DNA of 64,000 nucleotides from Circinella umbellata (lineage: Eukaryota; Mucoromycota; Mucoromycetes; Mucorales; Lichtheimiaceae): assembly GCA_025093555.1 (NCBI GenBank), contig JAIWNF010000098.1, positions 39,377-103,376 on the forward strand. The letters run 5' to 3'. Each line of letters begins with the position of its first letter. The stretch's first letter is position 1. The notes beneath the pieces are model-generated. The model was not told the DNA's origin. It saw only the letters and a list, made by a program, of their open reading frames with translations, and searched no databases. Made by a program: the position numbers and the translations under genes. This document shows, piece after piece, positions 16,998-41,350 of this stretch.

Positions 16998-17119
16998 GGC
17001 TCTCTATATTTATCACCAATAATGACGTCAGCAAATCATATAATGTGACATGAGAACTACAAATAAAAAATAACGTACCGCCGTGGCCAACAAAGGGCGC
17101 ATTACCAGTGTTTGACTGG
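16998..17119 (-). ncRNA. Candidate Fanzor guide-RNA scaffold (left copy)
   Basis: Reverse-strand 3' region between the Fanzor stop (17120) and the element edge. It mirrors the right-arm candidate, including the hairpin directly after the stop codon and a TGACGTCA palindrome. One substitution (C/T in the CCRCCG segment) separates the copies. Fanzor guide RNAs are known to derive from the 3' end of the locus; the assignment here is inferred from position only. Confidence 0.3.
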
Positions 17120-20100
17120 CTATTGGACAACAAGGTGTCCTCGATCTAAAGCTGGAGGTCTTGGTAAATTATTTAAATAATTTAGGAGAATTTGGCGCAT
17201 ATTACAGGCAGCATTAACATCACGATCCAAGTGCTACAGAAAAAAATATAGAGAAAATGATCATATTTAGCATTTAAAAATAAATAAAGTATGACCATTA
17301 AAGAAAGACGTATATACCAAAGCAGGAGTATTTCTAACCGACAAACAATTTTGGCAAATCTTTATAGGATAGATCAAACGGCGATAGTCTTCATCACCTG
17401 TGTAAATTTTGAAGAGGACATTAATAAATCACTTTATTGGATTGTATATGAAACTTACCTAATTGTACTCTTGCTTCACACTGAGATGTTCTAATTCTCG
17501 TTCCATCTGGTAAATTGCAGTAGCGGCGTCTGCGATGTCGAGGGCGTCCATCAGAATCTCTTACCCAACGATCATGGGTGACAGTTGTACTACATGACAG
17601 TTGCATTTATATTTAATAATGATGAATAGATGTATATAGAAAAATTATCAAAAAACTCACCGATGGTTACAAATCGACATATCATTTCTTCTTATATCGA
17701 ACAGGCGTTGATGGCAACCTGAGCATATTTTGCTTGTGTTGTACTCATCCACACATATAACCGGAGCACGTTGAGCAAGATACCTTCTGAATGTCTAAAA
17801 AAACAAATGTTTAGAAAATTTGGCAATAAGAATGAGTATCTAATATGCTCATTCTCTCTTTCCTAACCATGCATTACGTACTTTTGTTGGTAAAGGGCCA
17901 CTACCCTTCATTGTACCCCGGAGGTCAGCATCACCATAAGCAATCACCAATCTTTGGTCTCTTGGCGGTGGCTGTATGTGAGCCCCTTGTAACTGGTTTA
18001 AACTTTCACGTATAGTACGCACTTGAAGACGTCTTTCTGCTTTACGTTCTGCTTTGGATTTTTTTAAAGTTGACTGGATGTCAGGCTAAGAATATAAAGC
18101 GATGAGCATACATTAGTATAATTTATATAAAAGTTATATATATATTGATATATATAATATAATTGAAATGTGTTGTAAATACCTTTATTATTCCACCAGC
18201 GACGTAATTTGCCAAAACGTCAAGTGCACACTTACGACTTGCAGCACTTCGTTCTCTACGTTCTCTATGTCTAAAACCAATATTGAAAGTGTGGATACTT
18301 GGATATAATCATGTTAGATGTATTTATAATAGGCAAAGCTCTTTTTGCCCACATTTAATTTTTATATTAATCGCGTAATAACTTACTTTCTATGCACTCT
18401 TCCAAGGGCACTAATATAATTTAAATAACCTTGGGAACTTGGAACAGTGGGAGGGTTTTGTGTAAGGACATCATAGCTAGGTTGAATATTTGCATTGTTA
18501 CGTTCAATCAATTCTTGGTTTGCAGCACGTCTAAAACCGAACGTAGCCTAAATAAAATATAAATTATCAATTGATTGTTTGTTAATTTGTATACCACAGT
18601 AACAAAAAAGTATTATTACTTACTGATATTCACCGTTACTAACAGTCTTGATGTTATGTGTCCGCCAGTTTTTATTTCCCAGATCTTCCTGATGGTTATT
18701 GTAGTTTCCTACAGCAGTAAACATGGCACGGATGCCTACAATAATTTAAGTATGAAATAAATTAGTTTAGCCACATTTTGATTAAAAACTTTATATGTAC
18801 GTATAGTAAAAAATAATGTACCTGGATCAATTCCTATTATTTTAATTTCGGGATCTTGTCCTTCTTGTGAAAAAAACCGCTGACGATCTTCAGCGGAAAA
18901 GTGTGGAGCTTTATTGAGATGAAATATGCCTTTTGCATTTTGGTTTCCTAATATATCTAATCCATTAGGCATGGTACGAAAATTTTGTGTGGTTTGAGGG
19001 TATTGCTCTATAAATTGAAAAGGAATAATTAGTCACAAATATAACATAAACTAAAACACAAAGTAGCTTATATATGTACCAGTTCTCCTAGTGACATAAC
19101 CTAGTGAAGCACTAACACCGTTAGTTGTGATATTGTAGTCAAAACAAACAAAGGATTTACGCTGCCTTTGTTCATCTAAATTTATATATATGTTAATAAC
19201 CAATGTTTCAAATCATATCATTCAATCACTTTAATATCAAAACAAATACTTACGGGAATCAGTATAAAACCGCTGATTATTACCAAAGCAACTCAAATTG
19301 AACAATTCTCGCCAAAATGCTTCTTTTGTACGTGAAGGAAAGTATATGGTTTGATTAAAACGCTGGATAGTGATGGTATTCTATGTATAAGAAGATAGTA
19401 TATGTGTACATATATATAAGTATCATAAATTTCAATTTAAAGTAGTCGTATTACTATGGACATCGTAGTAACAATACTGTAAAATCACTTGAACAACTTA
19501 CGACTCCGTCATGCGTATGCATCATATTTGGGACATTGTGTCCCATTTGATTTGCTTCTACGAGCAAGTGAAATAAAGAAATACTATCGTAGTGTACATG
19601 GCCTACGAAAGAAAAATAATAAAAAAAAATTAGTTTTTTTTAAAAAAAAAAAAAACAATAACTTTCTATCTCCTAGACATACAAATCTGATGGTTTGCAA
19701 TTGGCAGCAGTGACCATTTTCTAATATCTTGTCGGTTGTGAACTTGTACAAGCAACCAGTGTGAGAATCGTAACAAAACTGGCACTAAGTTGTTGTGTTG
19801 TACGAGATATTGTTGGGTGAGGGTGTCGAGGTTGATATTGTTATTTTGAGCATCCTGTCCGAGTTCATTGTGTTGAACTAGCATTGCACTATATATAAAA
19901 ATATGCAAAAATAATTGAATAAAAACGATACCTAGACCAACAACAGAATGGAAATTATAAGTTAAATATACATACTTGTAGAATTCCATTAATGTGTTCT
20001 GCTGGTGGGGGTTCAGAACCAAAAATAATTCAGCATACCAGCCTGCATCAGCAAATGTAACACGTTGCTTGATGCTTTTGACTGCTGCACGAGCTATATT

Positions 20101-21149
20101 CATCAGTGTAATAATTAAAAATATTAGGAATATCTTTAATATCAAGAAATTACATTATACGTATCTGTTCACATATATAGAAACATACCTAATTTGGAGG
20201 GACCTCCCCTTGGCATCACTACGCCTTGATCTTCATAATTCCGCAAGTGACCAGTAAATGCTCTTACCATGAACGAACTTGTGTTTCGAATCAGGTGTTG
20301 AGCAGTGTCTAAAATAAATAAAATAATAACAATATAAAACCTTAAGTAAAATGATAGAAACATGCTATATATCATGTAACAATAAAACATACTTGTAACA
20401 ATTTGATGTGCAAAATGATTCTGACCAACATAATTTAAACATGCAGTTAACGTAGGTGGCTGATAATTAGCTACAAAAAGACAGAAAAAGAAAGATAATA
20501 CACCGGTATTAGTAAACAAATCAAGGTTATATAAAAACAATTATACAATTCCGTATACCTTGACCTAATTCGTTTCTCAATGCTCGTAAATAATGCTGGT
20601 TATATGTATTTAACACATCCTGGTATACTTGTTGAGGCAACTGAGAAATTAAATAGTAGAATAACACACTTTTGTTAATATATAACATGTGACTATTATA
20701 TATCTATATTTTCAATACGTACATTATTATTCAGGACAGTGGTGGTAACAAGAACATTATTGGGAACAAGCTGGAACAAAACTCTCCAGAAATTAAGGCT
20801 CAAAATGTCAGGGAATCCACCTGTGTAAGCTTCAGGATTCTCTAACAACATGCGAACATGTAAGTTGGCCAAGTTCAGAACGTCCCTTCTAAGCAATTGG
20901 TAATGCTCGGCATTTCTGCGAAAAACATCCTATTTTATAATAAATGTTACTATGATTTGGTACCCTAGCGCGTAATAATATTGTTATTATGATCTGATGA
21001 AAAATACATACTCTACAAGACTTATATCTTGCGTTTAGAAGGGTGGAGAGTTTACAACTTTGTGCTTTATGCTGTATCGAACCAGGACCTCCTGTAACCA
21101 AATAACCAGACGCACCCGAAAGTGGCTGTAGAGGTTGAGGAACCTGCAT
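17120..21149 (-). pseudogene. Fanzor (left-arm copy), frameshifted
   Basis: Reverse-strand copy of the 19-exon Fanzor gene in the right arm, starting with ATG at 21149 and ending at the TAG at 17122-17120. The exon boundaries and motifs I compared are conserved, including RuvC-I GIDPG, VDEYNTSKICSGC and LDRDVNAACN. One base is missing near 18540: the right arm reads GTTCAGG, the left arm GTTCGG. The frame after this point, just beyond RuvC-I, soon reaches a stop, so RuvC-II, the zinc finger and RuvC-III would be lost. Substitutions also occur (for example Met to Arg in exon 10, Thr to Ile in exon 9). Intron 7 is 1 bp shorter and intron 9 is 5 bp longer than in the right arm. An assembly error is possible but the site is not a homopolymer. 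Confidence 0.82.
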
Positions 21150-22558
21150 ATACTAAAAATGAAAGCTGCTCAAAAAAAAACGATATATGAATAAGAAAAT
21201 GGGGAAAAGTGAAAAAGTTATGTAGATCAAGAATATTCAAAAAAAATTAGATATTTTATATTTTGCCCCTTTTTTTCAGAACAAAGGTAAAATCAGGATG
21301 TCGCACAAAGGGAACAAAGAAATACACAAAAGGAAAATCATGCTACCCCTTTTTTTAATCCCATACAATGAAAGAATATTTATAGTACGATATGTACTGT
21401 AGACATATTAACTTAAAAAGAACGAGAGGTTTACCGCGGCTAAAAATAATGGAAATTTACCTAATTCTCTTTCAGTTTGTTTGAAAAAGACAACCATGCA
21501 TTTGCACGGAATAAATCTATAAATTTCTATTACAAAAATAAATGAATATGAGTGACAGTGTATATGAATTTTGCATCAATCTGAATAAAATATCTATGAA
21601 AATATATCTGTAAATATGAATGAAAATGAATATGGCTGATTATCTATGAAATCATGGTTACATATACTTTTTCGTATAACCATGATCATGTGAAAAGAAG
21701 TGATTTCCCATGCACTTTTATATTGCTTTTCTCATTATCTCGCATAGTGAATGGTGCACAAAAAGAAAATATATGATCCAAGGTGCTTATTATAATAGAA
21801 GTATATGTACTGTTATATCAATAGAATTAATAAAATAAAAGGAGACGTAAATAAGTCAAGGAGACCCAAAAGAACAATAATTGAACTCCAGTTTATTAAA
21901 ATAAAATATCATCTCTATTAATATGAATCTTATTATCGGTGGGATATACTGATATGTGTATATGGGTATACGTAAGATTATATTTGTCATGGCCGTGTGA
22001 ATTATGAATATAAGCTTAATGATATTAAGATTAGACTTTGAGCGGTTGACGATATGATATATCTACGCAGCTGTTATCTTTATCATTATAGAAGACGGAC
22101 TTTGTGTTCTTACAAATCACTGTCCAAATAGGGAAATACCAAAGTGTCAGCAAAGAATAATTAGAGATACGACAAATAATTATCTTTATGAATAATATGT
22201 GTTGGATACAACATGTACTAATTATATTATATGACATAGTATATCATATATATTTATTAAGCAAAATGTATATTATTTAAAAATCCAGTGCTGAAAACCT
22301 ATGAGTCTATCTTTATTGATTTATGAATATCTATGCCTCAGTTTAATCTATGAAGTAGGAATCTGCATGACGTGGCACTTTCATAGAAATCTATTATTAA
22401 AAAGGGTGTACTGTTCGTCCTAATGTATATCCTTTAATTAAGAAGAATCAAGTAAAGAGAGGTTTTTATTATATGGAACCATACTTCATATATATACAAG
22501 CCACAACACCAAATGACTCATATTAGTAAATGGGGAAAAAAAGACTGCTGAAATGCGA
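21150..22558. other. Left-arm spacer between Fanzor and E2
   Basis: Non-coding, AT-rich, mirrored at 35831-37201. It contains an imperfect hairpin around 21645-21695 (ATCATGGTTA...TAACCATGAT type). It holds the pre-insertion site TTACTAAT (on the reverse strand, near 22530) that is filled by the 1.53-kb MITE in the right arm. No gene is recognised; the 68-codon frame at 22031-22237 is conserved only as DNA. Confidence 0.6.
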
Positions 22559-23682
22559 TTATATTCTTCTTTTTTTATGAATATGTGTATTAATATAGCC
22601 ATCTCCTTCATCACTGGGTAGAGGCGAGTCTTCTATTACAATAGGTGTTGTTGGATTACACATGGTAATATTCTCTTCTTCTTCATTGCGTGGAGGTGAG
22701 TCTTCTATTACAATAGGTGTTGTTGGATTACACATGGTAATATCCCCTTCTTCTTCATTGCATGGAGGTGAGTCTTCTATTACAATAGGTGTTGTTGGAT
22801 TAAACATGGTAATATCCTCTTCTTCTTCATTGTGTAGGGGCGAGTCTTCTATTACAATTGTTGTTGGTAGCGGTGTATTTGTTAACGATTGTAATGTAGT
22901 TTTTTCCAAAATCTAAAATGTTTAATATAAAATAATAATATTACGTAAGCTTTATTTCATGATGCTTTTATTTTTACTCAACTTGTTGAATTACTCTTTC
23001 TTCGCTGGCAAATTTACGAGTATATTCACGTGCTTTTGTTTCGTATGAATCATTGTTTATCAAAATCTCCATAGCCTAAAAAGATTCCACAAAGTCTTCA
23101 ATATCATTATTATATAATGGTTATATAGTTTTACATAAAAAGGTCCCTTACAATGTTTGTATCAATAGGGTCCACACATCAGGCTGCATCAGAATCATCC
23201 GCAATGACTTTAAAACAGTCGATAAGGCTACTGATTCACCCCAATTATCTATCCAGGTATCAAAAGCGCATGAACGACCGTTCTTATCAACGTTTGGATG
23301 GTATATCTTCGTAAGAAACTTGAATTCTGTTGGCATTTTTGGATATTCGTAAGGAATCTTCATCTCTACTCCAAAATATCCATTTCGTATGGCGTATCTT
23401 CTGGACCTTTTATCACTAAACGTGTTGCAATTAATTAATATTTATAATGCTTAGATAAAGTGTAACATTAAAACACGCTTTCCTTACCAGCATATATTCT
23501 TGATAAATTATTATCAAGTGGTATACAATGAACACCTTCGCTATAATCTGCATTAATTGATTCTGTTTCTATTAATTAACAACTTGTATGTAATCAGAGA
23601 ATATAACTGCAAGAAGTAACCAAAGTTAAAACAAATTACCAATTTCTTGAATAATCCGTTTAAATTCTTTCAAATTGGACAT
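22559..23682 (-). pseudogene. E2 ubiquitin-conjugating enzyme with SIM tail (left copy), two frameshifts
   Basis: Copy of the right-arm E2 gene. The ATG (23682-23680), splice sites, HPN motif and catalytic Cys segment NGRSCAFDTW are all present. Two single-base deletions lie in exon 3: near 23384 (CATTTCG against CATTTTCG) and near 23174 (CCACACATC against CCACCACATC). Each shifts the frame, so no full-length E2 can be made. The SIM tail exon (22909-22559) stays open but has four IVIEDSP units where the right arm has five. Loss by point deletion rather than by rearrangement fits relaxed selection on the redundant arm. Confidence 0.85.
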
Positions 23683-24771
23683 TTGTAGATCAAAATTGAA
23701 AAAAAAAATACTACTCGACAAGATGGAACTATAAGGCTTTATTTATTTACTTTTAATACTATGTGTATTGTTACAAGGGAATTCGGGAATTGTTACGGAC
23801 ACTCCACAAATAAAAAGTTGTCAAACAAATTCTTAGACATGCAAACTATTATACTACTAGCGTTGACAACACGCAATACCGCTTCTTATTTGACCACTCA
23901 TATATATCATTAGGAGTATACATTACTCCTTGTTTCGTTGTCTTGTCTCCATGTGGGCTACAGCTCTCACTTGTGCACATAACTATATAGTGAGAGAAGA
24001 TGAACGATATTCATAAAATGTTAAACTACTAATATAAGTTCATAAACATTTTTAAGTTTTATAACGATGATAGCTGTATATATAGTGTATAAATGGCTGG
24101 ATACGACGTAATTACATTAGACTGTTATGTATTTTTGAAAAAATATAAAAGTGGGGTGTCCGTAGCAAATCTCTTTTTTACAATCACTTAAAAAGTAATC
24201 TTTAGTGCTTGATCTTAATATAGCTCACAATAAATATTCCTCTTCTTTATACTTGTATTGATACGGTTCGATCATATCGTGTTAGAAGAATGAATATAAT
24301 TCCGAGTATACGTATGACTCAAGGAAAAGGATAGATTATAATAAATACATAACTTATAAAAATAAAAAACTCTAGTAAATTTAGTAAAGCTTAGTAAAAC
24401 TATAGATATAATTGAGGAAGAAAAATGTCGTATTTATACTAATTTCTATCTATCTATCTTAAAATTGATAATTGGTTGTAATTCATGAGTATTAGTAACT
24501 TGTACTTGTAACAGTTAATTGCAAGCGTTGCAATTACTTGTAAATGTTGCAGCTACTTGCACACGTGCTCTTTACTGGCTTAGGTTAGAATTACTTGTAC
24601 AGGTAGCAATTATCCTACTTATCTTTAACAACTGGTTCTGCCGGTCTGAATGGAACACATTATTCATGGTATGATAAATACTTTTTTATTTGTTCAATAA
24701 TAAATTATTATATAATAAAGAGTTACTATTGATGTTGATAATTTATAAGGTGATAATATATTTAATAAATT
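23683..24771. other. Left-arm inner segment with MITE
   Basis: Non-coding DNA upstream of the left E2 copy, mirrored at 31969-33057. It includes the 385-bp MITE at 23787-24171 and an imperfect series of Gly-less direct repeats around TGCAAGCGTTGCAATTACTTG near 24510-24560 (purely DNA-level). No gene is seen. Confidence 0.6.
23787..24171. mobile_element. MITE-like element in left arm
   Basis: 385 bp bounded by imperfect inverted repeats: GAATTGTTACGGACACTCC at the left and GGGGTGTCCGTAGCAAATC at the right (15-16 of 19 positions pair). The identical-size copy in the right arm is at 32569-32953, and a diverged partial relative lies outside the palindrome at 42537-42765. It sits about 100 bp upstream of the E2 start codon, so it forms part of that promoter. 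Confidence 0.6.
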
Positions 24772-24890
24772 TAAAAAAGGGGGAAAGGGAAAAAGGGGGT
24801 AACACTATAATAATAGCAACTCGCTCAACGTGGTTTTTTTTATATTTTTTTTTGCCTTTTCTTTTTCAAAAAAAATTAAGTATTATTAAC

Positions 24891-27190
24891 ATGAATCGTT
24901 ACAACGTGTAAATATTATAACTATTATTATTATTGTATGGAGTGGAATAATAAAAGTTGAAGAATTATTAACAACTAAAATGTAGACTTCGTCTTTTGCA
25001 ACAGCAGCAAGTATGTAAAAATGATTATAATAATTGAATGTTTTTTTTCTTTAACATAATCTAAAACATTTAACAGCCTCAACAACCGCGACAACCTCAA
25101 CAGTTTCAACGACAAGGTATTACTTTGCATATATAAAAAAAAGTTCGAAAATCATATCGTTTATATGCTCATTGAAATTTTGTTGTATGTTTTTGAAGTT
25201 CCTAATTTCGCAGGACACCCACTTGAAGATGCCTTGAATGAGGTGTGTGATATACAATCATATTATAAAGGACAAAATAATACGTAGTAGTCTAATAAAT
25301 ATAGGTTTGTGCTTTAGATACTTCAACAACATCATGACGTGCTTGTGTTTGGTATGTATGAACCCAACTGTTCTTTTGACCATATAAAAAAAACTAACAC
25401 AAAAAAAAGCTCCCCCGAGAAGTGATAAATCAAGAATTTTGGAAGCTGCGTTATATCATGAGTTAAACTTAAACCGTCAAACAAGTAAATATTTGGTGTT
25501 GTATCCAGATATGCACATGTGCCAAATAAAACTTCAGATGCTTCAGCAGCGATTTCCCCAATTAAACTGTTAAGTCAAGAAATTATTTGCACCGTAGTTA
25601 CTTTATTTCTTTGCTTTGTACTAACGTTATGTATAAAACAGCCATTGCTTTAGCAGAAGGAGTCAATGACCAACAAATCGCTGATGCTGACGCAATGTAA
25701 GACTATTGATTTATAAAGTTTGTATCAATTATGTAAATTAAGTACGTATATACTGATAAATTAGGTAATTACGTATAACAATAATAGTGTCAGTATTCCT
25801 TCCATGTGGTACCCTCGCAGGGTAGTAAATGTTAATCTCATAGTTGTAAGCGATAATTAATATAAAGCATATTAATACGCTATAAATGCGAACATAAAAG
25901 TCCATAAATATATTATCATATTTTTAAAAAGTCGATACTTTTATAAGATAATTACCAACCTAACTTTGTAATAGGTTGTCGAGATCTTGGAAATAATGGG
26001 TGACCCGCAGGAAAGGGATTATTTAGATGCTTACTTGGCACATGTTAAAGTACGATTTTATTATAATATGTTCAATATTCTTCATGAATTGTTTGAATTA
26101 TGTATTTATAAAATTAAAATTGATTTAACTAGAGAAACAACCATTCCCACCGACATAGAATAGTCGCTACCTCATCAGAACTCAATTTCGCAGAAGAACT
26201 TCGAATTTATTTGAATCTTGCCCAAGGTAATTCTGTATTGTGTGAAAATAATAGGAATTATTTATTATATTTTATTTCAGTAGTTGCTCACTTGAATAAC
26301 ATGCCAGTGTTTCGATTTGAAAACCTCTTTCACCATTGGAGTCAAGATGTAGCATGTGATATTGTTCCTGTAAACAGAAATAACCAGCATCTGTTCATTT
26401 ATGATGCGTCTATTGATACGTCTGGTAATCCAAGGTATTATATAGAATTATAAAGTTACCATTATTAATACGTCTATTAATAAGTAATGATTTCTGATCT
26501 CTGTGTATTTTTTTGTACTAGCTTGATTAGCGTGATCGCACAAAGAATGAGAGAAGGAGATGAACAAGTGATAGTGGTAAGAAATGTTTATATTTTATAT
26601 ATTACTGTATTCGATTTAACAATTATGAGCAATGATGAAAATATTGTTTTGATTATTTATTAGATTTGTCAAGACAGAATGGCTACATACCTAACTTGTG
26701 AACGGCTAATTTCATGGTTATTACCAAGAAATCAATCAATGCTGTAAGCTAAAAAATTAACGAATATTTAAATTTTAATGAAATTAACATTATTTCAAAA
26801 AGGCCAAATAATAGTAATGCGGTTATTCATTATAACTTCGATGACCAGACTCTTGTGAACGGATTAAGATTAGGCTTAACTTATTTTTATGGTGAAGTAT
26901 TCAATCACCAATGTATTAAGAAAAATAAAACCTGCTTTAAATTTACTAACATATCGAATATTTAACTATAATAGACAACATGAGTGATCATGACAAGAAC
27001 ATTGTGATAGACATGTATCAACGTCGAGAGATCAGGGTTATATGTAACGTGATTGACAAATATTATTTCACACGTGTAATTTTTATGAAAAAAAAAATTA
27101 ATTAATATATTTATAGGTACAACCATCGGTATGACATTAGATCGTAGTGCATTTCCGGTATGTAACAATGACAAAAGGATATTAGTAGTA

Positions 27191-27239
<49 letters not shown>

Positions 27240-28909
27240 CTAAATATAATTTTTTTATTAACTATTTTGTAGTTTGATGCCGATGTTATTATAATAAAAC
27301 CAAACGAATGTGAGTTTACTTTTATTTTATTTTTAAGCCATACGTAAAATACTATATGCCAAATATAATTTTTCAATCACTTTGACAAATCTTTGGATTT
27401 GTTAATTATAGGCTATGTTAATGGATGCATCACCACTTATTCACCTGTCCTGCTACGTAGTGCTTTTTCATGCGCGTTGCGTCAAAATAATCCTTTTAAA
27501 GAAGCTGTTATTATTACTCATGACGAAAGCACTGTTCACTCGGACACTGTAATCATCAATAGGTAATTTCGAAGTGCAGATGGTGTTGAATTATATACAG
27601 CACGACTTTATATATCTCAAACTCAACTATTATTTCTTATTAGTATGTCTGCTCATTTGAGCCGCTACTTATTGTTTGAAATATGCGTAGGTGGAACAGT
27701 TTCTGAAAATGATATTTTTCGATGGTATATATTACATATGTAATACAGTACATAAATTTGTTGCAATAATATATTGTATTAATCTTTTCTATTTCTTAGG
27801 TATTCTGAAACTTTCTATGTGCGACAACCTAATTTCAACAACCAACAACGCGTGGACCAACTCACGACATTGACAAGTGAGTATATATACATATATATAT
27901 TTTATTTAATAATTACGTACGTTAATGAAATGCTGGTGCAATTTAAATATTATAGATGCATTGATCAGGTTAGGGCTTAACAGTTTAATTACACCGAATG
28001 TCACGAACCATACCGTAGCCATTACACGTTGGTATAAGTTTAAAACGGGTTATTATAGAAACAAAGCAAGAGGTGGAATACTAATTGATAGAATTATATA
28101 TTAGTTTCTGGAAATCTTATTGTATACTACAGCATAGAAATTGAAACTTATAATCTCATTATATCTAACCTTGCTGGTGATGATGGACATTTTTTAAATG
28201 TTCAAAGATTGGTATGCTTTTTATTTAGTTGCTTTATTTCCATGTTATTTTTTAATGTTAATGCTTTATTTTAGCTGCTTTTTGTAAGTGGCTTCCAAGA
28301 GTTCAACGTCATTCAATACCATCCGCGAGATCATGGTTTTTTTCAAAACTACAACGACAGTATACCACATTTTCCACACGGCAGAGGGGTAATTGATATA
28401 CAAACTAAAGTATATGTATTACTGCAGGTATAATGGAATGAAAATTATATAATAAATAAAAATAACAAGCTTCAACAAGTTTTATCAAACTCTTTATAGC
28501 TCACTGTTGGTGGCGTAACCACTGACAGTCATGTGTCGGGTACAGCTTATCAAGCAGAAGGAGAGTGTGTAATTCGTGTAGCGTTGCGAGTCATGTCATG
28601 TAAGTATTCATAAACTACCACTCCACAATAACACAGATAAAAACATATTTTCTATTTTCTATATCAGCTGAATTATACACATGATATCTGTTAGTTATTC
28701 TTCATTTCTATCACATTATTAACCAGCATCAAGGGATCACCGTCCAGCAGCATATATTTAGAACTGCACACCTTCTACATTGTATGCTGGCTACTCGTGC
28801 TTGGACCCCAACAAATGAAACAGTACACCAAACGCGGTTACAGCTAATGGAACAATTTCTTCCATTGAACAACATAATCATTAATCAGATAAATCTGCAG
28901 CAACAATAA
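24891..28909 (+). CDS. Brr2/Ski2-like pseudo-helicase
   Basis: Twenty-five short exons (24891-24907, 24986-25010, 25077-25116, 25214-25242, 25318-25351, 25410-25568, 25642-25696, 25821-25845, 25975-26049, and so on to 28695-28909) join without a stop into 656 aa. After a Gln-rich start (MNRYNVLRLLQQQQ), VLVFAPPRSDKSRILEAAL occupies the Walker A position of Brr2-type helicases, IVVVEILEIMGDP the DExH position and IVATSSELNFAEEL motif III. Then come MSDHDKNIVIDMYQRREI (residues about 313-330), DVIIIKP, the winged-helix-like SAHLSRYLLFEICVGGTVS and Sec63-like HQGITVQQHIFRTAHLL. Walker A lacks both glycines, the DE of motif II is gone and the motif VI arginines are not visible, so ATPase activity is unlikely. 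Brr2 remodels U4/U6 in the spliceosome; a regulatory or decoy role is inference. Exon phases agree at every junction, implying a maintained gene. Confidence 0.75.
27191..27239. repeat. Palindromic (AC)n(AT)n(GT)n microsatellite in intron
   Basis: About eight AC, eight AT and eight GT units form an almost perfect self-complementary tract inside intron 16 of the pseudo-helicase gene. Transcribed, it would fold into a long hairpin between the splice sites. Confidence 0.9.
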
Positions 28910-30218: not shown

Positions 30219-31616
30219 ATGGACAATAACCAACAACAACAGCAACGCATTAGATACGCACAAGTTATAGATTTACAGCGACGGTTGGAGAGTATGCATC
30301 CTGGAGCATCAACTATTACTATGAATAGTACACTTAGGCACCTAACAGGTGGTACCAGTGCTAGGGCAGCAATGAATACAGCGCGTGCCCATGTACAATT
30401 ATTTCAACAAGAAAATTACGATGCACAAATTCAACATCAAAGTGCTGTTCAACAAGAAGAACAGTTTCCACAGCAGTTACAAAACCTTCTTCAAAACCAA
30501 CAACACCAATTATTGTTGTTACAAAATTATCACGCTTTAGGAATGCAAAACAACAACGTACAGCAGGTTCAACCGGGCCTAAATATTTTGATTCAAAATT
30601 ATCAGAACATGATACAGCAAACAAGGGACATGTTGGCCAATATACAGTTGCCACCAGTTCAACAGCCACCAGTGCAACAGCCACCAGGTCAGCAGGTGCA
30701 AGCACAGCACCCACAAGTACCATGGACAGTAAACTTACGAAGAAACATCTTACTCGGATTATTACAAAGAGCTGCTGGTATACCAGACCCCATTGACACA
30801 ATTGACACTTCTCCTCTATGTATCGCGTTTATCAATGGCACAGATTCTGTACATACCGGTGAATCCATAGTCCAAGCTGAACAACAGATTCAATGGTTAA
30901 TACAAAGAACCCAATATTTCCGGACGGGTACGGAGCAGTTGGACCAAAATCAGTTGATCTCAGGCAACACGGTTGATACAGCATTAGGTACATTTTTTCA
31001 AGAAAGATACAACAATTTCTTATTTGCATCACCTTATCAGGACCAACAGCATCAAACACCGCCGCTTTCGTACCAGCACTATTTACAAGATGTAGCATGT
31101 CATTCCTTTGCAACTTTGTACGAGCAACACATAGTAGCGATGTCACATAGCAACAACATTGCTCATTTTTTTAATGGTATTGACCCCATGCAGCAGCCAC
31201 GACGACTTTTGGACCACAATCAAATAACGGATCTTATAAATGCATTGGGTAACCACCACCAGCAACAGCAACAACAACAACAACAACAACAACCGCTCAT
31301 ACAGATTATTAGAGATCATTTTGGAAATGAACGAGTGGATCTGCTTTTAACTGTGTGGGAACAGGTACTGTGGGAATCACACCAGCGACGCATTATTCAA
31401 ACCTTGCTGCATGACCCATTTAATCAAGTTACCGTGTCTTTCAACAGGTGGACAGCAAACCTACCAAGTTCTCACCAACGACATCAACTTGTAACTTCTT
31501 TGATCAATAATAATGCACAAAGTATCGCTGCAGGTTTGGGATATCATCATAATCATGTTATACGGGTAATCCATATAAGAGCTCAAAATTTATTTGGTCA
31601 TCATCTTCCCCGTTAG
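30219..31616 (+). CDS. Q-rich protein of unknown function
   Basis: An intronless 465-aa ORF, unusual among the intron-rich genes of this element. It opens with MDNNQQQQQRIRYAQVIDLQ, continues as a glutamine-rich, probably helical/coiled-coil segment (residues about 70-145), then a PPVQQPPVQQPPGQQ linker (about 148-162), and a C-terminal region with predicted helices (about 170-465). This C-terminal region is interrupted by a pure CAA/CAG-encoded Gln run near 31258-31292. No zinc finger, DDE triad, recombinase tyrosine context or membrane segment is visible. The intronless state suggests retro-insertion or a different origin from its neighbours (inference). Polar low-complexity content suggests a condensate-forming or scaffold protein, but that is only a possibility. 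It is unique to the core and not duplicated in the arms. Confidence 0.75.
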   Translation: MDNNQQQQQRIRYAQVIDLQRRLESMHPGASTITMNSTLRHLTGGTSARAAMNTARAHVQLFQQENYDAQIQHQSAVQQEEQFPQQLQNLLQNQQHQLLLLQNYHALGMQNNNVQQVQPGLNILIQNYQNMIQQTRDMLANIQLPPVQQPPVQQPPGQQVQAQHPQVPWTVNLRRNILLGLLQRAAGIPDPIDTIDTSPLCIAFINGTDSVHTGESIVQAEQQIQWLIQRTQYFRTGTEQLDQNQLISGNTVDTALGTFFQERYNNFLFASPYQDQQHQTPPLSYQHYLQDVACHSFATLYEQHIVAMSHSNNIAHFFNGIDPMQQPRRLLDHNQITDLINALGNHHQQQQQQQQQQQPLIQIIRDHFGNERVDLLLTVWEQVLWESHQRRIIQTLLHDPFNQVTVSFNRWTANLPSSHQRHQLVTSLINNNAQSIAAGLGYHHNHVIRVIHIRAQNLFGHHLPR

Positions 31617-31968
31617 CGTTTCCTATATAGCAAGGGATCTGGACCTTACTTCTTACCTGGTTTATATTTTAGTTTTCTTGTAACCTTTCAGATGCTCCTT
31701 ATTGTCCCTTATCATATTTTTTTTACCTCTATTCTGTAATAAAACTCTGCGACGGATGTAATGTTTTTATTATCATAAATACACATTAATATAATATTAT
31801 TCAAGAAATTAAGTACTATATACTACCATTATTTCGGTTAGTCATGCCTTTTTATTTGTTAATACGTAATAAAGTGACTATTTATATTTCAAGTATATAA
31901 ACTAGGAAGTTGCCGTATGTTGTTATTTCTTTTTCCCTTCCCTCTTTTTTTTCTTCTCTATTTATTTA
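31617..31968. other. 3' flank of Q-rich gene to arm boundary
   Basis: AT-rich 3' UTR-like sequence with AATAAA-type signals (for example around 31737-31743, 'taataaaact') and a pyrimidine-rich stretch just before the right arm begins. Nothing else is seen. Confidence 0.55.
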
Positions 31969-32568
31969 ATTTATTAAATATATTATCACCTTATAAATTA
32001 TCAACATCAATAGTAACTCTTTATTATATAATAATTTATTATTGAACAAATAAAAAAGTATTTATCATACCATGAATAATGTGTTCCATTCAGACCGGCA
32101 GAACCAGTTGTTAAAGATAAGTAGGATAATTGCTACCTGTACAAGTAATTCTAACCTAAGCCAGTAAAGAGCACGTGTACAAGTAGCTGCAACATTTACA
32201 AGTAATTGCAACGCTTGCAATTAACTGTTACAAGTACAAGTTACTAATACTCATGAATTACAACCAATTATCAATTTTAAGATAGATAGATAGAAATTAG
32301 TATAAATACGACATTTGTCTTCCTCAATTATATCTTTAGTTTTACTAAGCTTTACTAAATTTACTAGAGTTCTTTTATTTTTATAAGTTATGTATTTATT
32401 ATAATCTATCCTTTTCCTTGAGTCATACGTATACTCGGAATTATATTCATTCTTCTAATACGATATGATCAAACCGTATCAATATAAGTATAAAGAAGAG
32501 GAATATTTATTGTGAGCTATATTAAGATCAAGCACTAAAGATTACTTTTTAAGTGATTGTAAAAAAGA

Positions 32569-33057: not shown

Positions 33058-34255
33058 ATGTCCAATTTGAAAGAATTTAAACGGATTATTCAAGAAATTG
33101 GTAATTTGTTTTAACTTTGGTTACTTCTTGCAGTTATATTCTCTGATTACATACAAGTTGTTAATTAATAGAAACAGAATCAATTAATGCAGATTATAGC
33201 GAAGGTGTTCATTGTATACCACTTGATAATAATTTATCAAGAATATATGCTGGTAAGGAAAGCGTGTTTTAATGTTACACTTTATCTAAGCATTATAAAT
33301 ATTAATTAATTGCAACACGTTTAGTGATAAAAGGTCCAGAAGATACGCCATACGAAAATGGATATTTTGGAGTAGAGATGAAGATTCCTTACGAATATCC
33401 AAAAATGCCAACAGAATTCAAGTTTCTTACGAAGATATACCATCCAAACGTCGATAAGAACGGTCGTTCATGCGCTTTTGATACCTGGATAGATAATTGG
33501 GGTGAATCAGTAGCCTTATCGACTGTTTTAAAGTCATTGCGGATGATTCTGATGCAGCCTGATGTGGTGGACCCTATTGATACAAACATTGTAAGGGACC
33601 TTTTTATGTAAAACTATATAACCATTATATAATAATGATATTGAAGACTTTGTGGAATCTTTTTAGGCTATGGAGATTTTGATAAACAATGATTCATACG
33701 AAACAAAAGCACGTGAATATACTCGTAAATTTGCCAGCGAAGAAAGAGTAATTCAACAAGTTGAGTAAAAATAAAAGCATCATGAAATAAAGCTTACGTA
33801 ATATTATTATTTTATATTAAACATTTTAGATTTTGGAAAAAACTACATTACAATCGTTAACAAATACACCGCTACCAACAACAATTGTAATAGAAGACTC
33901 GCCCCTACACAATGAAGAAGAAGAGGATATTACCATGTTTAATCCAACAACACCTATTGTAATAGAAGACTCACCTCCATGCAATGAAGAAGAAGGGGAT
34001 ATTACCATGTGTAATCCAACAACACCTATTGTAATAGAAGACTCGCCTCCATGCAATGAAGAAGAAGAGGATATTACCATGTGTAATCCAACAACACCTA
34101 TTGTAATAGAAGACTCACCTCCACGCAATGAAGAAGAAGAGAATATTACCATGTGTAATCCAACAACACCTATTGTAATAGAAGACTCGCCTCTACCCAG
34201 TGATGAAGGAGATGGCTATATTAATACACATATTCATAAAAAAAGAAGAATATAA
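33058..34255 (+). CDS. E2 ubiquitin-conjugating enzyme with tandem SUMO-interacting-like tail
   Basis: Exons 33058-33100, 33172-33252, 33325-33590, 33667-33759 and 33830-34255 give 302 aa. Residues 1-161 are a UBC fold: GPEDTPYENGYFGVEM, then KIYHPNVDKNGRSCAFDTW with the HPN motif and the catalytic Cys eight residues after it, then YETKAREYTRKFA typical of the C-terminal helices. Residues about 162-302 contain five 24-residue repeats of the type TPIVIEDSPPCNEEEEDIT. The hydrophobic IVI core followed by acidic residues and Ser-Pro fits the SUMO-interacting motif pattern. The last intron uses donor GTTGAG; without it the protein would stop after QQVE with no tail. The tail exon has no ATG and is in phase, so splicing to it is likely but inferred. 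A role linking SUMO-decorated targets to ubiquitin transfer is plausible. Product modifier (ubiquitin, SUMO or other) is not determined. Confidence 0.82.
33880..34205. repeat. 72-bp tandem repeats encoding SIM-like units
   Basis: Five units in the right arm and four in the left (22612-22860 region), each encoding 24 aa with IVIEDSP. The copy-number difference is one exact unit, consistent with slippage or unequal exchange after the arms separated. Confidence 0.92.
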
Positions 34256-34292: not shown

Positions 34293-35822
34293 GAGAATTA
34301 CTACATGGGCTACAAAAATTCAAAGTCAGACCACATGGGCTACAAAAATCATAAGGTATGTTAGTAACTTGTAGCCCATCTCGTCTGCTTGCCATATATA
34401 GATCCTGTAGCCCATCTCGTCTAATTTTTTGTAGCCCACCTCGTCTAATTTTTTGTAGCCCACCTCGTCTAATTTTTTTGTAGCCCATCTCATCTAATTT
34501 TTTTTAATATCATATAGTTGCTAATGTTGTATTATAAGAACATTATCTCTTTATCCCAGATGAAATAAGAAATCATATTTAAAATACAGATGTGAGCAGA
34601 ACTCAATTCTAAAAAGGAAACTGAGTAAAATCGCATAACAATGTCCTGCACCTCGTCAACTTAAATTAAAGAATAAAAGAGAGTTTCATGGCTAAGCCCA
34701 ATATACTTCAGAACAGTAGCTATAGTAACCTTCTCAATATTAATGACTAATATCAAGTACCTGACTTTACTATCAATCACCCACATCATTCTATTAACAA
34801 GCCCCATAACTCATAGAATAGAAATCATATAAATACAGGTTGTAAATATTATTTTAAAGAAAGAACTTTATTCTAGTTTCTAAATTATTATTAAAGATAT
34901 ATAACAAAGTCTCAAAGGATTTATACCTTGTCTGTTTTTATTTCCTACTCTTATTAGAATAACCAAATATCACAGCTAATTTTCAAAATAAAATTTTTAA
35001 GATAATTAATTTCATTGTTATTACTATGTTTTTACGCTATAACTACACTTTTATTATATTATTCTCTTCCCTAAGTGTATAGTAAAATTACTTTGTGCTA
35101 CCTTTTCCCTTTTTGACAATTTTATTTTTCATACTTCTGGTAATGCACATTGATTTCTGCTTGGTACTTATTATACCATATATTAATCAGTATTGTCAAG
35201 GTGTGCAGCAATATTAACATCATAATTTGTATGCATTATAATTACAATTATTGCTAAATCACGCAGCAATATTAGCATCATTATTCATATTTTGCTGTTA
35301 CATTCCGTTTAGATCGTACTTAATAAAATAAAAGAAGATAGAAGTAATTCTGAGTAAAAGACTCAAGGAATAAAGAAAGTTATACATATCAAATAACTTA
35401 TTCAACAAAAATAAAAGGGGGTGGTTTTTTATAACCACAGCATATTCAATATGTCAAGACATTATCATTAGTATTTCTATTTTCATATTGTTGTTGTTGA
35501 TGTTTTCATTCTCGTTTACGTATTATTATTATTATTATTATTATTATCAAATACAGTCTATCTTATAATTGTAACCTTTTTCAATAATATTAATGTAGAA
35601 AAAGTGACAAAAAAGGGTCGAGAAGTGGATGATAAAAAAAATTAGATGAGGTGGGCTACAAAAAAATTAGACGAGGTGGGCTGCAATAAATTAGACAAGG
35701 TGGGCTACAGGATCTATATATGGCAAGCAGACGAGATGGGCTACAAGTTACTAACATACCTTATGATTTTTGTAGCCCATGTGGTCTGACTTTGAATTTT
35801 TGTAGCCCATGTAGTAATTCTC
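34293..35822. mobile_element. 1.53-kb non-autonomous element with 8-bp TSD
   Basis: Present only in the right arm. It is flanked by TTACTAAT at 34285-34292 and 35823-35830; the empty site in the left arm has a single copy. Inverted ends of about 190-200 bp begin GAGAATTACTACATGGGC. Each end contains a direct TGGGCTACAAAAAT pair and then an array of about 24-bp units (TGTAGCCCACCTCGTCTAAT type), four at the left and three at the right. No coding capacity is seen. An 8-bp duplication is typical of hAT-like elements; the superfamily is not proven. An (ATT)n run lies near 35521-35549. Confidence 0.92.
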
Positions 35823-35830
35823 TTACTAAT

Positions 35831-37201: not shown

Positions 37202-40200
37202 ATGCAGGTTCCTCAACCTCTACAGCCACTTTCGGGTGCGTCTGGTTATTTGGTTACAGGAGGTCCTGGTTCGATACAGCATAAAGCACAAAGTTGTAAA
37301 CTCTCCACCCTTCTAAACGCAAGATATAAGTCTTGTAGAGTATGTATTTTTCATCAGATCATAATAACAATATTATTACGCGCTAGGGTACCAAATCATA
37401 GTAACATTTATTATAAAATAGGATGTTTTTCGCAGAAATGCCGAGCATTACCAATTGCTTAGAAGGGACGTTCTGAACTTGGCCAACTTACATGTTCGCA
37501 TGTTATTAGAGAATCCTGAAGCTTACACAGGTGGATTCCCTGACATTTTGAGCCTTAATTTCTGGAGAGTTTTGTTCCAGCTTGTTCCCAATAATGTTCT
37601 TGTTACCACCACTGTCCTGAATAATAATGTACGTATTGAAAATATAGATATATAATAGTCACATGTTATATATTAACAAAAGTGTGTTATTCTACTATTT
37701 AAATTCTCAGTTGCCTCAACAAGTATACCAGGATGTGCTAAATACATATAACCAGCATTATTTACGAGCATTGAGAAACGAATTAGGTCAAGGTATATGG
37801 AATTGTATAATTGTTTTTATATAACCTTGATTTGTTTACTAATACCGGTGTATTATCTTTCTTTTTCTGTCTTTTTGTAGCTAATTATCAGCCACCTACG
37901 TTAACTGCATGTTTAAATTATGTTGGTCAGAATCATTTTGCACATCAAATTGTTACAAGTATGTTTTATTGTTACATGAGATATAGCATGTTTCTATCAT
38001 TTTACTTAAGGTTTTATATTGTTATTATTTTATTTATTTTAGACACTGCTCAACACCTGATTCGAAACACAAGTTCGTTCATGGTAAGAGCATTTACTGG
38101 TCACTTGCGGAATTATGAAGATCAAGGCATAGTGATGCCAAGGGGAGGTCCCTCCAAATTAGGTATGTTTCTATATATGTGAACAGATACGTATAATGTA
38201 ATTTCTTGATATTAAAGATATTCCTAATATTTTTAATTATTACACTGATGAATATAGCTCGTGCAGCAGTCAAAAGCATCAAGCAACGTGTTACATTTGC
38301 TGATGCAGGCTGGTATGCTGAATTATTTTTGGTTCTGAACCCCCACCAGCAGAACACATTAATGGAATTCTACAAGTATGTATATTTAACTTATAATTTC
38401 CATTCTGTTGTTGGTCTAGGTATCGTTTTTATTCAATTATTTTTGCGTATTTTTATATATAGTGCAATGCTAGTTCAACACAATGAACTCGGACAGGATG
38501 CTCAAAATAACAATATCAACCTCGACACCCTCACCCAACAATATCTCGTCCAACACAACAACTTAGTGCCAGTTTTGTTACGATTCTCACACTGGTTGCT
38601 TGTACAAGTTCACAACCGACAAGATATTAGAAAATGGTCACTGCTGCCAATTGCAAACCATCAGATTTGTATGTCTAGGAGATAGAAAGTTATTGTTTTT
38701 ACTTTTTTTTTTAAAAAAACTAATTTTTTTTATTATTTTTCTTTCGTAGGCCATGTACACTACGATAGTATTTCTTTATTTCACTTGCTCGTAGAAGCAA
38801 ATCAAATGGGACACAATGTCCCAAATATGATGCATACGCATGACGGAGTCGTAAGTTGTTCAAGTGATTTTACAGTATTGTTACTACGATATCCATAGTA
38901 ATACGACTACTTTAAACTGAAATTTATGATACTTATATATATGCACACATAAACTATCTTCTTATACATAGAATACCATCACTACCCAGCGTTTTAATCA
39001 AACCATATACTTTCCTTCACGTACAAAAGAAACATTTTGGCGAGAATTGTTCAATTTGAGTTGCTTTGGTAATAATCAGCGGTTTTATACTGATTCCCGT
39101 AAGTATTTGTTTTGATATTAAAGTGATTGAATGATTTGAAACATTGGTTATTAACATATATATAAATTTAGATGAACAAATGCAGCGTAAATCCTTTGTT
39201 TGTTTTGACTTCAATATCACAACTAACGGTGTTAGTGCTTCACTAGGTTATGTCACTAGGAGAACTGGTACATATATAAGCTACTTTGTGTTTTAGTTTA
39301 TGTTATATTTGTGACTAATTATTCCTTTTCAATTTATAGAGCAATACCCTCAAACCACACAAGATTTTCGTACCATGCCTAATGGATTAGATATATTAGG
39401 AAACCAAAATGCAAAAGGCATATTTCATCTCAATAAAGCTCCACACTTTTCCGCTGAAGATCGTCAGCGGTTTTTTTCACAAGAAGGACAAGATCCTGAA
39501 ATTAAAATAATAGGAATTGATCCAGGTACATTATTTTTTACTATACGTACATATAAAGTTTTTAATCAAAATGTGGCTAAACTAATTTATTTCATACTTA
39601 AATTATTGTAGGCATCCGTGCCATGTTTACTGCTGTAGGAAACTACAATAACCATCAGGAAGATCTGGGAAATAAAAACTGGCGGACACATAACATCAAG
39701 ACTGTTAGTAACGGTGAATATCAGTAAGTAATAATACTTTTTTGTTACTGTGGTATACAAATTAACAAACAATCAATTGATAATTTATATTTTATTTAGG
39801 CTACGTTCAGGTTTTAGACGTGCTGCAAACCAAGAATTGATTGAACGTAACAATGCAAATATTCAACCTAGCTATGATGTCCTTACACAAAACCCTCCCA
39901 CTGTTCCAAGTTCCCAAGGTTATTTAAATTATATTAGTGCCCTTGGAAGAGTGCATAGAAAGTAAGTTATTACGCGATTAATATAAAAATTAAATGTGGA
40001 CAAAAAGAGCTTTGCCTATTATAAATACATCTAACATGATTATATCCAAGTATCCACACTTTCAATATTGGTTTTAGACATAGAGAACGTAGAGAACGAA
40101 GTGCTGCAAGTCGTAAGTGTGCACTTGACGTTTTGGCAAATTACGTCGCTGGTGGAATAATAAAGGTATTTACAACACATTTCAATTATATTATACATAT

Positions 40201-41228
40201 CACTATATATATAACTTTTATATAAATTATACTAATGTATGCTCATCGCTTTATATTCTTAGCCTGACATCCAGTCAACTTTAAAAAAATCCAAAGCAGA
40301 ACGTAAAGCAGAAAGACGTCTTCAAGTGCGTACTATACGTGAAAGTTTAAACCAGTTACAAGGGGCTCACATACAGCCACCGCCAAGAGACCAAAGATTG
40401 GTGATTGCTTATGGTGATGCTGACCTCCGGGGTACAATGAAGGGTAGTGGCCCTTTACCAACAAAAGTACGTAATGCATGGTTAGGAAAGAGAGAATGAG
40501 CATATTAGATACTAATTCTTATTGCCAAATTTTCTAAACATTTGTTTTTTTAGACATTCAGAAGGTATCTTGCTCAACGTGCTCCGGTAATATGTGTGGA
40601 TGAGTACAACACAAGCAAAATATGCTCAGGTTGCCATCAACGCCTGTTCGATATAAGAAGAAATGATATGTCGATTTGTAACCATCGGTGAGTTTTTTGA
40701 TAATTTTTCTATATACATCTATTCATCATTATTAAATATAAATGCAACTGTCATGTAGTACAACTGTCACCCATGATCGTTGGGTAAGAGATTCTGATGG
40801 ACACCCTCGACATCGCAGACGCCGCTACTGCAATTTACCAGATGGAACGAGAATTAGAACATCTCAGTGTGAAGCAAGAGTACAATTAGGTAAGTTTCAT
40901 ATACAATCCAATAAAGTGATTTATTAATGTCCTTTTCAAAATTTACACAGGTGATGAAGACTATCGCCGTTTGATCTATCCTATAAAGATTTGCCAAAAT
41001 TGTTTGTCGGTTAGAAATACTCCTGCTTTGGTATATACATCTTTCTTTAATGGTCATACTTTATTTATTTTTAAATGCTAAATATGATCATTTTCTCTAT
41101 ATTTTTTTCTGTAGCACTTGGATCGTGATGTTAATGCTGCCTGTAATATGCGCCAAATTCTCCTAAATTATTTAAATAATTTACCAAGACCTCCAGCTTT
41201 AGATCGAGGACACCTTGTTGTCCAATAG
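37202..41228 (+). CDS. Fanzor RNA-guided nuclease (eukaryotic TnpB homologue)
   Basis: Nineteen exons (37202-37339, 37422-37628, 37711-37792, 37881-37958, 38043-38162, 38258-38375, 38463-38668, 38750-38850, 38972-39098, 39172-39267, 39340-39525, 39612-39723, 39800-39961, 40078-40165, 40263-40466, 40554-40687, 40759-40889, 40951-41030, 41115-41228) join in frame to 827 aa. The N-terminal half is helical and Gln/Asn-rich. RuvC-I is IIGIDPG (Asp about 485), RuvC-II is VDEYNTSKIC (Glu about 692), a zinc finger uses CSGC (699/702) and CQNC (778/781), and RuvC-III is LDRDVNAACN (about 793-797). This order and the DEYxTSxxCxxC arrangement are diagnostic of TnpB/Fanzor. Length and intron content fit the Fanzor1 group (inference). 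Such proteins cut DNA guided by an RNA made from the 3' end of their locus. The stop codon lies 122 bp from the element edge, as expected. All catalytic residues are retained. Confidence 0.92.
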
Positions 41229-41350
41229 CCAGTCAAACACTGGTAATGCGCCCTTTGTTGGCCACGGTGGTACGTTATTTTTTATTTGTAGTTCTCATGT
41301 CACATTATATGATTTGCTGACGTCATTATTGGTGATAAATATAGAGAGCC
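41229..41350 (+). ncRNA. Candidate Fanzor guide-RNA scaffold (right copy)
   Basis: 122 bp from the Fanzor stop to the sharp right edge of the element. A perfect hairpin (CCAGT-CAAAC-ACTGG, 41229-41243) begins at the base after TAG. A GGCCACGGTGG segment and a TGACGTCA palindrome follow, and conservation with the left arm ends exactly at GAGAGCC. By analogy with omega-RNA/fRNA, the guide would be read from the flank starting TTTGCGGTTG at 41351. The call rests on position, structure and conservation only. Confidence 0.35.

What the first reader, a model, noticed from the sequence alone, without database searches (positions are those of the whole stretch)
16998..41350. A 24-kb palindromic element carrying Fanzor and an E2-SIM enzyme in its arms
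Two 7.77-kb arms, each with Fanzor on the outside and an E2 with SUMO-interacting-like repeats inside, flank a unique core with a Brr2-like pseudo-helicase and a Q-rich protein. Known Fanzors ride on small TnpB-like units or on classical DNA transposons; I recognise no transposase here. The gene set suggests an element that combines RNA-guided cutting with manipulation of host SUMO/ubiquitin and possibly RNA processing. Whether it moves as one unit is inference.
Basis: partly seen in the sequence, partly recalled or inferred. Interest (0 to 1): 0.93.

Follow-up and report, generated by a model that had tools for sequence, protein, structure and literature searches.

The report
Rearranged giant Fanzor transposon in fungus
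The 24-kb mirror-image block is present in the assembly, but it looks like a rearranged copy of a larger jumping gene of about 20 kb that carries an RNA-guided DNA cutter (Fanzor) together with an unusual ubiquitin enzyme and other unknown proteins, not a mobile palindrome in its own right.

Summary
The palindrome is in the sequence: arms 16997-24804 and 31921-41351, about 99% identical. It does not behave as one mobile unit. The arm's outer end (GGCTCTCTATATTTATCACC...) is shared by five copies in different flanks, so it is a true transposon end. The opposite end, absent from this window, is on contigs C202, C133 and C112 and is an imperfect inverted repeat of it. Pieced together from several contigs, the intact element is about 19-22 kb: a MULE-like segment, an orphan 381-aa ORF, a helicase-like protein, a Q-rich protein, a Ubc13-like E2 with five SIM-like repeats, and Fanzor at the far end. 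Copy C133...C200 has 9-bp flanks matching at 8 of 9 bases at both ends, as in MULEs. In the window the far end is missing; an inverted second Fanzor/E2 arm is joined to the core inside a solo LTR, most simply by ectopic recombination at the LTR; an assembly chimera is not excluded. Arm parts alone (C204) and core beside another neighbour (C202) both occur. MuDR-type Fanzor elements are known from Mucorales; the gene load looks new.

The parts
16997..24804 (-). left arm: inverted second copy of the Fanzor-side part of the element, up to the inner end of a solo LTR
   Evidence: outer end shared with C204, C200, C112
31921..41351 (+). right arm: Fanzor-side part of the element in the same orientation as the core genes
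16998..17030 (+). element end (RE, Fanzor side), left copy: GGCTCTCTATATTTATCACCAATAATGACGTCA
   Evidence: five copies with different flanks; imperfect inverted repeat of the other end on C202/C133/C112
41318..41350 (-). element end (RE), right copy; flank TTTGCGGTT shares 7 bp with the flank of the other end on C202
17120..21149 (-). Fanzor gene, left arm; 1-bp deletion relative to the right arm (18538) inside what the right-arm model treats as exon
37202..41228 (+). Fanzor gene, right arm, 18-exon model, 829 aa; motif D487-X209-TS-xx-C4-X12-RD
22559..23682 (-). E2 gene, left arm; 1-bp deletions relative to the right arm at 23174 and 23382
33058..34255 (+). E2 gene, right arm, 298 aa: UBC domain nearest to Ubc13/UBE2N among solved structures, catalytic Cys kept, then five IVIEDS repeats
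24259..24804 (+). solo LTR at left arm/core junction; flanks GTAT (arm) and CTAT (core)
   Evidence: the same LTR on C202 has CTAT/CTAT
31921..32481 (-). inverted solo LTR at core/right arm junction; flanks ACAT (core) and ATAT (arm), read in LTR direction
24891..28909 (+). core gene 1: intron-rich, 24-exon model, 704 aa, helicase-like by recalled motifs only (APPRSDKS in place of a Walker A)
   Evidence: no significant homologue
30219..31616 (+). core gene 2: intronless Q-rich protein, 465 aa
   Evidence: one match in the genome search; structure prediction uninformative, pLDDT 37
34293..35830 (.). later TE insertion in the right arm only (terminal repeats about 190 bp, 8-bp TSD TTACTAAT)
21811..22214 (.). 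dispersed about 400-bp repeat inside the arm (present in both arms), absent from the C112 copy
13277..16944 (+). separate multicopy MULE element next to the left arm, not part of the Fanzor element

Best explanation
The window holds a rearranged copy of a large MULE-type Fanzor transposon. SHOWN BY SEQUENCE: one element end (RE) follows Fanzor and is fixed in five copies; a second, different end (LE) lies on C202, C133 and C112 and is an imperfect inverted repeat of RE. INFERRED: intact copies run LE-side MULE-like segment, 381-aa orphan ORF, helicase-like gene, Q-rich gene, E2-SIM, Fanzor, RE (about 19 kb, about 22 kb with the MULE-like segment), the last five genes in one direction, and insert by cut-and-paste with 9-bp duplications using a MULE transposase. 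In this copy the LE side was lost: a break in the left solo LTR was repaired from the inverted LTR next to another copy's E2/Fanzor arm, giving arm-LTR-core-LTR-arm. Fanzor would act as proposed for TnpB elements: an RNA read from the RE end guides cutting of sites that lack the element, so that repair copies it back. The Ubc13-like E2 with SIM-like repeats would go to SUMO-marked repair sites and favour template-directed repair. The last two steps are hypotheses.
For: RE identical or near-identical at five sites with unrelated flanks. LE on C202 and C112 91% alike over 65 bp, starting at the same base; third LE on C133. LE against RE: 0 of 2,000 shuffles reach the score; MULE-segment end against RE 4 of 2,000. 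Copy C133...C200: 9-bp flanks CATAAAAAC and CGTAAAAAC, 8 of 9, directly at the two ends; P about 2.5e-4 per pair; eight flank pairs had been scanned with free offset first, and the 9-bp frame was set after the end of the MULE segment had been fixed from other copies, so the value is partly post hoc. Copy C202...window right: 7 shared bases TTTGCGG, weaker. Helicase-like, Q-rich, right-arm E2 and Fanzor genes all on +; orphan ORF next to the core in the same direction on C202. Solo LTR on C202 has perfect 4-bp TSD CTAT, the TSD length of a full element of this LTR family on C2 (GTGT/GTGT), so C202 shows the original neighbour of the core. Arm identity fades within the last 35 bp of the LTR. E2 3' part and SIM repeats sit beside Fanzor also in the old C112 copy, 83-89% DNA identity.
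Against: No contig carries the intact element end to end; it is pieced together from C202/C133, the window and C200, of which C202, C133 and C200 stop inside it. C202's core differs from the window's at 6 of about 1,372 positions, so C202 and the window's right arm are not simply two halves of one present-day copy. The MULE-like segment is weak: PF10551 E=0.14, below cut-off; SWIM finger 21.8 bits in one exon piece and 19.5 in the gene model, cut-off 19.6; its reading frame may be interrupted; and it is a fragment of a separate multicopy family, so it may be a neighbour and not the element's transposase. No such segment was found near the C112, C204, C200 or window copies, and C112 shows no target duplication. 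On C112 the LE alone does not exceed shuffled scores against RE (24). Left LTR flanks match at 3 of 4 bases, as do the right ones, so the LTR argument alone is not decisive. Only this one genome was searched at DNA level.
Confidence: 0.62

Rival explanations
1. The palindrome is an assembly chimera: reads from two copies in opposite orientation were joined inside the 0.55-kb LTR, and the left Fanzor arm really belongs to another copy.
For: Inverted LTRs about 99% alike outside their last 35 bp are the junctions; three contigs (C133, C200, C202) end inside this element family, so it was hard to assemble; the flank of C202's end shares 7 bp with the window's right flank, as if C202 were the true left partner.
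Against: The arms carry 46 substitutions and a private TE insertion, so two distinct arms exist; a 0.55-kb repeat is short for a long-read assembly (the assembly method is not known to me). Searches with the two outer flanks listed no other full-length copy of them, but did not list the window itself either, so they say little.
Confidence: 0.2
2. One reading: a 24-kb palindromic transposon whose 7.8-kb arms are its terminal inverted repeats and which moves as one unit.
For: Both outer ends are true element ends, and both could in principle be recognised by one transposase.
Against: No second arm-core-arm copy among the matches listed, no target duplication seen at the two ends, core adjoining another neighbour on C202 and a different far end on C202, C133 and C112.
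Confidence: 0.08
3. Two independent short Fanzor/E2 elements inserted in opposite directions on either side of an unrelated host segment.
For: RE ends are precise at both sides with different flanks; C204 shows an arm part without the core; in Mucor the MCi-2 Fanzor family has a fixed 3' end and variable 5' parts (PMC3627910, section 12).
Against: Both arms stop at the same place inside inverted copies of the same LTR subfamily, seen at 97-99% only at the two window places and on C202 (next matches 82% and lower); the core is found with LE on C202; core genes and right arm share one direction.
Confidence: 0.1

Closest known systems
MuDR-type Fanzor1 elements of Mucorales (ROr-4, PBl-3, MCi-4; Bao and Jurka 2013, PMC3627910; abstract, sections 5 and 12 read)
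   Same: Fanzor1-type protein in a Mucorales fungus, terminal inverted repeats, 9-bp target duplications; as there, several copies here (window, C112, C204) have no transposase
   Different: Here about 19-22 kb with four further genes and a MULE-like segment at one end of two copies.
MCi-2 Fanzor family of Mucor circinelloides (same paper, section 12)
   Same: Constant Fanzor-side end, changing far side
   Different: MCi-2 lacks TIRs and has 11-12-bp TSDs; variation here is explained by truncation, deletion and LTR recombination
TnpB/IS200-IS605 and Fanzor RNA-guided nucleases (Saito et al. 2023, PMC10432273, two passages seen)
   Same: RuvC/C4 motif, gene placed at the element's end where a guide RNA could run into the flank
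   Different: Guide RNA not shown here; no TnpA seen; a fold of the end region is not unusual (z -1.03)
Ubc13/UBE2N E2 enzymes
   Same: Best solved relatives (108.8 bits against 87.4 for the best Ubc4 chain), HPN and catalytic Cys kept
   Different: Best-scoring place elsewhere in the genome, C173, is 41% identical, a short exon piece on C124 52%; C-terminal tail of five IVIEDS repeats
Plant MULEs with ubiquitin-like protease genes (Kaonashi; recalled, only a search listing seen)
   Same: MULE carrying a ubiquitin/SUMO-pathway gene
   Different: Protease there, conjugating enzyme here; no Fanzor recalled there

Membership tests
Fanzor (Fanzor1) | D-X(125,275)-[TS][TS]-xx-C4 zinc finger-X(5,50)-RD (motif as printed in the PMC3627910 abstract) | tested here: met
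   right arm: D487, 209 residues, T697 S698, CxxC 701-704 and 780-783, 12 residues, RD 796-797; the 75-residue gap between the CxxC pairs is long
Fanzor (Fanzor1) | sequence kinship to known Fanzor proteins | tested here: inconclusive
   2 of 4,992 candidates significant: Circinella minor (65% over 45%) and Fennellomyces (39% over 84%), neither named Fanzor; weak Pfam Cas12f1-like_TNB hit below cut-off; no NCBIfam or PDB hit
Fanzor (Fanzor1) | RNA-guided DNA cutting | not testable with these tools
   needs experiment
MULE / MuDR superfamily | 8-10-bp, mostly 9-bp target duplication (recalled; 9 bp also in PMC3627910) | tested here: met
   met for one copy: C133/C200 pair 8 of 9; C202/window right 7 bp only; C112, C204 and the two window ends: none found
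MULE / MuDR superfamily | terminal inverted repeats | tested here: met
   LE, MULE-segment end and RE alike over about 30 bp
MULE / MuDR superfamily | MULE transposase encoded | tested here: inconclusive
   C202:3901-6707 segment: PF10551 E=0.14, below cut-off; SWIM about at cut-off; DxTHKT and CHWHxxR signs are recalled; 22% match to the window MULE at E=0.26
E2 ubiquitin-conjugating enzyme | UBC domain with HPN and catalytic Cys | tested here: met
   PF00179 E=2.2e-29, profile positions 5-139 of 140; Cys aligned to the Ubc13 Cys
SUMO-interacting motif protein | hydrophobic core next to acidic stretch binding SUMO | not testable with these tools
   five IVIEDS repeats; SIM reading is by eye
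Ski2/Brr2-like helicase | profile or sequence match to the RecA, winged-helix or Sec63 parts | tested here: not met
   no family at E up to 10 in Pfam; only unrelated weak hits in NCBIfam (0.046) and PDB (1.5, 0.45); none among 7,062 candidates of the large protein search

The most novel reading that the evidence does not exclude
A multi-gene Fanzor 'homing' transposon: Fanzor cuts empty sites, and co-carried proteins (a Ubc13-like E2 that reads SUMO marks, a degenerate helicase-like protein, Q-rich and orphan proteins) steer host break repair towards copying the element, the first RNA-guided eukaryotic element with its own repair-directing gene set.
Probability: 0.15. Interest if true: 0.85.

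Novelty: new variant of a known kind. Interest (0 to 1): 0.55.

Why it matters
What Fanzor does for its carriers is an open question. An element of about 20 kb in which Fanzor has long travelled with a Ubc13-like E2 bearing SIM-like repeats (both are already together in the old C112 copy) gives a concrete partner for Fanzor and a test of the idea that RNA-guided cutting in eukaryotic transposons works through the host's recombination repair. It also shows that a palindromic 'element' seen at first sight can be the scar of recombination at LTRs.

Tried and rejected
Searched for an inverted partner of the RE inside the arm: nothing above shuffles, which sent me to other contigs. Tested 16997/41351 for a target duplication by eye: none. 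Took the window's MULE (13.3-16.9 kb) as the transposase: rejected, separate family with many solo copies. Took the 24.26-24.80 kb repeat as a TIR of a core element: rejected, it is an LTR (paired 8.75 kb apart in direct orientation on C2 and C189, 4-bp TSD). Took C202:3901-6707 as a complete MULE inserted in LE: solo copies on C137 and C57 continue past 3901, so it is joined there as a fragment; not resolved. Structure of the Q-rich protein: pLDDT 37, no fold search made. Guide RNA at the RE: fold not better than shuffles (z -1.03); one compensatory difference to C112 seen by eye, not counted. Selection on Fanzor between arms: 5 synonymous, 7 non-synonymous codons; coding 12/2,489 against non-coding 18/2,055, Fisher p=0.14: no conclusion. 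Orphan ORF: only itself found. Uniqueness of the outer flanks: searches did not return even the self match, so I draw nothing from them on copy number. Gene models come from a home-made splice finder trained on the window; exon edges are approximate, and the models of the MULE-like segment and of C204 are poor.

Print: Fanzor with 'ubiquitin-conjugating' 0 papers, with MuDr 1, with Mutator and transposase 4, Circinella umbellata with genome and transposable elements 0, in the held open library only.
Full report
ORGANISM. The window is G000:C209:39377-103376 of a 50.8-Mb genome in 210 contigs. The orphan ORF of contig C202 is found at 100% over 96% of its length as a protein of Circinella umbellata on a contig of 117,830 bases, the length of C202, so the genome is very probably that of this Mucorales fungus. 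The two significant Fanzor relatives are from Circinella minor and Fennellomyces.

OBSERVATION. The inverted repeat is in the sequence. Outer edges are 16997 and 41351; on the inside the arms end in two inverted copies of a solo LTR (24259-24804 and 31921-32481), the match fading within the LTR's last 35 bp. The right arm has a later TE insertion of 1,538 bp with an 8-bp duplication and one more 72-bp SIM-repeat unit. The dispersed repeat 21811-22214 is in both arms and missing from the old C112 copy.

ENDS. In five places (window left and right, C204:52595, C200:1834, C112 about 1041637) the sequence GGCTCTCTATATTTATCACC... (ACTTTCTATATTTATCATT... in C112) begins abruptly next to unrelated flanks. 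This is one end, RE. Aligning RE against the fetched contigs gave a second, related end facing the other way on C202 (score 34 against a maximum of 30 in 30 shuffles of the same 20 kb) and a weaker one on C112 (score 24, not above shuffles by itself). These two second ends match each other at 91% over 65 bp, beginning at the same base. A genome-wide pattern search with up to 3 mismatches gave 6 places: 2 LE (C202, C133) and 4 RE (C200, C204, C209 twice); the reversed control pattern gave 2. The LE-RE score is reached by 0 of 2,000 shuffles.

INTACT ELEMENT. On C202, reading from LE: orphan ORF 381 aa, solo LTR with perfect TSD CTAT/CTAT, then the first 1.4 kb of the core, where the contig ends. 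In the window the core gene, the Q-rich ORF, the right-arm E2 and Fanzor follow in the same direction up to RE. Joined on paper, LE to RE is about 19.1 kb including the later 1.5-kb insertion, 21.9 kb with the MULE-like segment. C133 also holds LE and stops 1.3 kb inside. This piecing together is an inference: no contig spans it.

MULE SEGMENT AND TARGET DUPLICATION. C202 and C133 share a further 2.8-kb segment just outside LE, related to many places in the genome (the 8-kb query listed 53 matching pieces, most of them in this segment; a lower bound). Outside that segment the two flanks differ. Its outer end resembles RE and LE (4 and 2 of 2,000 shuffles reach the scores). At the outer end on C133 the flank is CATAAAAAC; after RE on C200 it is CGTAAAAAC: 8 of 9, in place. 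Eight flank pairs (2 by 4) had been scanned with free offset before, and the exact end of the segment was taken from C57, C137 and C133; P about 2.5e-4 per pair is therefore partly post hoc. C202 and the window's right flank share TTTGCGG (7 bp), with the last bases of the segment missing on C202. Solo copies on C137 and C57 run past the join to LE, so on C202/C133 the segment is a fused fragment. It carries weak MULE signs. It is not found near the C112, C204, C200 and C209 copies in the stretches fetched. Whether it supplies the transposase is open.

HOW THE PALINDROME AROSE. The core's other known left neighbour is the orphan ORF and LE (C202). In the window that side is replaced, from within the LTR outward, by an inverted Fanzor/E2 arm ending at its own RE beside a different flank. 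Recombination or break-induced replication between the left LTR of this copy and the inverted LTR of a copy at the left locus would give this. Diagnostic sites do not fix the exchange point inside the LTR: near the core the left LTR is like C202, elsewhere it has private changes. C202's core differs at 6 of about 1,372 positions from the window's, so at least two cores exist. An assembly chimera at the LTR would look the same and can only be excluded with reads.

OTHER COPIES. C204 carries 4.55 kb of the Fanzor side (98%) with a stop codon in the right arm's frame and the first RuvC Asp changed to Gly, so it is probably dead. C112 is an old 2.5-kb remnant with both ends, bits of Fanzor and the 3' part of the E2 with its repeats. 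Thus E2 and Fanzor have been together for long; for the core genes and the orphan ORF this is not shown. A further Fanzor piece at 79% lies on C189:409521-409676 and was not followed. A distant second Fanzor family may exist in the genome (C136, C5, C174, C101, C197, C15, C195; 24-44% in pieces at E 3.5e-5 to 5e-4) and was not examined.

GENES. Fanzor: 829-aa model with the motif complete in the right arm; the left arm has a 1-bp deletion in a modelled exon. E2: PF00179 E=2.2e-29; best PDB sequences Ubc13/UBE2N; catalytic Cys kept; five IVIEDS repeats followed by acidic stretches; best place elsewhere in the genome 41%. Core gene: the helicase look (APPRSDKS, EI..GT, TFYVRQ) is recalled pattern only; all database tests were negative. 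Q-rich: no Pfam family above cut-off, not searched in the large protein set. Orphan protein: only itself found.

MECHANISM. Likely: MULE-type cut-and-paste for movement (supported by the ends and the 9-bp duplication of one copy), Fanzor for RNA-guided cutting at or after movement (from the known family), E2 acting on SUMO-marked repair complexes to favour copying repair (hypothesis from Ubc13 biology, recalled). I give the first step about 0.65, the second about 0.5, the third about 0.15.

LITERATURE. Bao and Jurka 2013 (PMC3627910; abstract, sections 5 and 12 read) already describe MuDR-type Fanzor elements with 9-bp TSDs in three Mucorales and the MCi-2 family with variable far ends. Saito et al. 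2023 (PMC10432273): two passages seen. The 2023 NAR paper PMC10711439: a term search only, no hits. I found no report of a Fanzor element with an E2 gene in the searches named above.

Noticed in passing
   Followed up: no
C189:409521-409676 (own genome): A further 79% piece of this Fanzor (residues 425-476 of the query), possibly another old copy.
   Followed up: no
P0001 (Circinella minor): The closest Fanzor protein is annotated with an N-terminal DUF6729 domain in place of the first exons: either a mis-annotation or another rearranged far side.
   Followed up: partly
window 16998-17060: The RE end folds into a terminal hairpin (GUUCUC/GAGAGC); the C112 copy seems to keep the stem through a C-G to U-A change (by eye). 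Fold energy is not unusual.
   Followed up: partly
C2:200267-209574: LTR retrotransposon with 609-bp LTRs (99.8% alike) and 4-bp TSD GTGT; related LTRs are dispersed in the genome.
   Followed up: partly
window 41638-42536: Dispersed 0.9-kb repeat matching at least 30 other places in the genome.
   Followed up: no
C209 contig ends: No TTAGGG/CCCTAA in the first or last 2,000 bases of the contig.
   Followed up: yes
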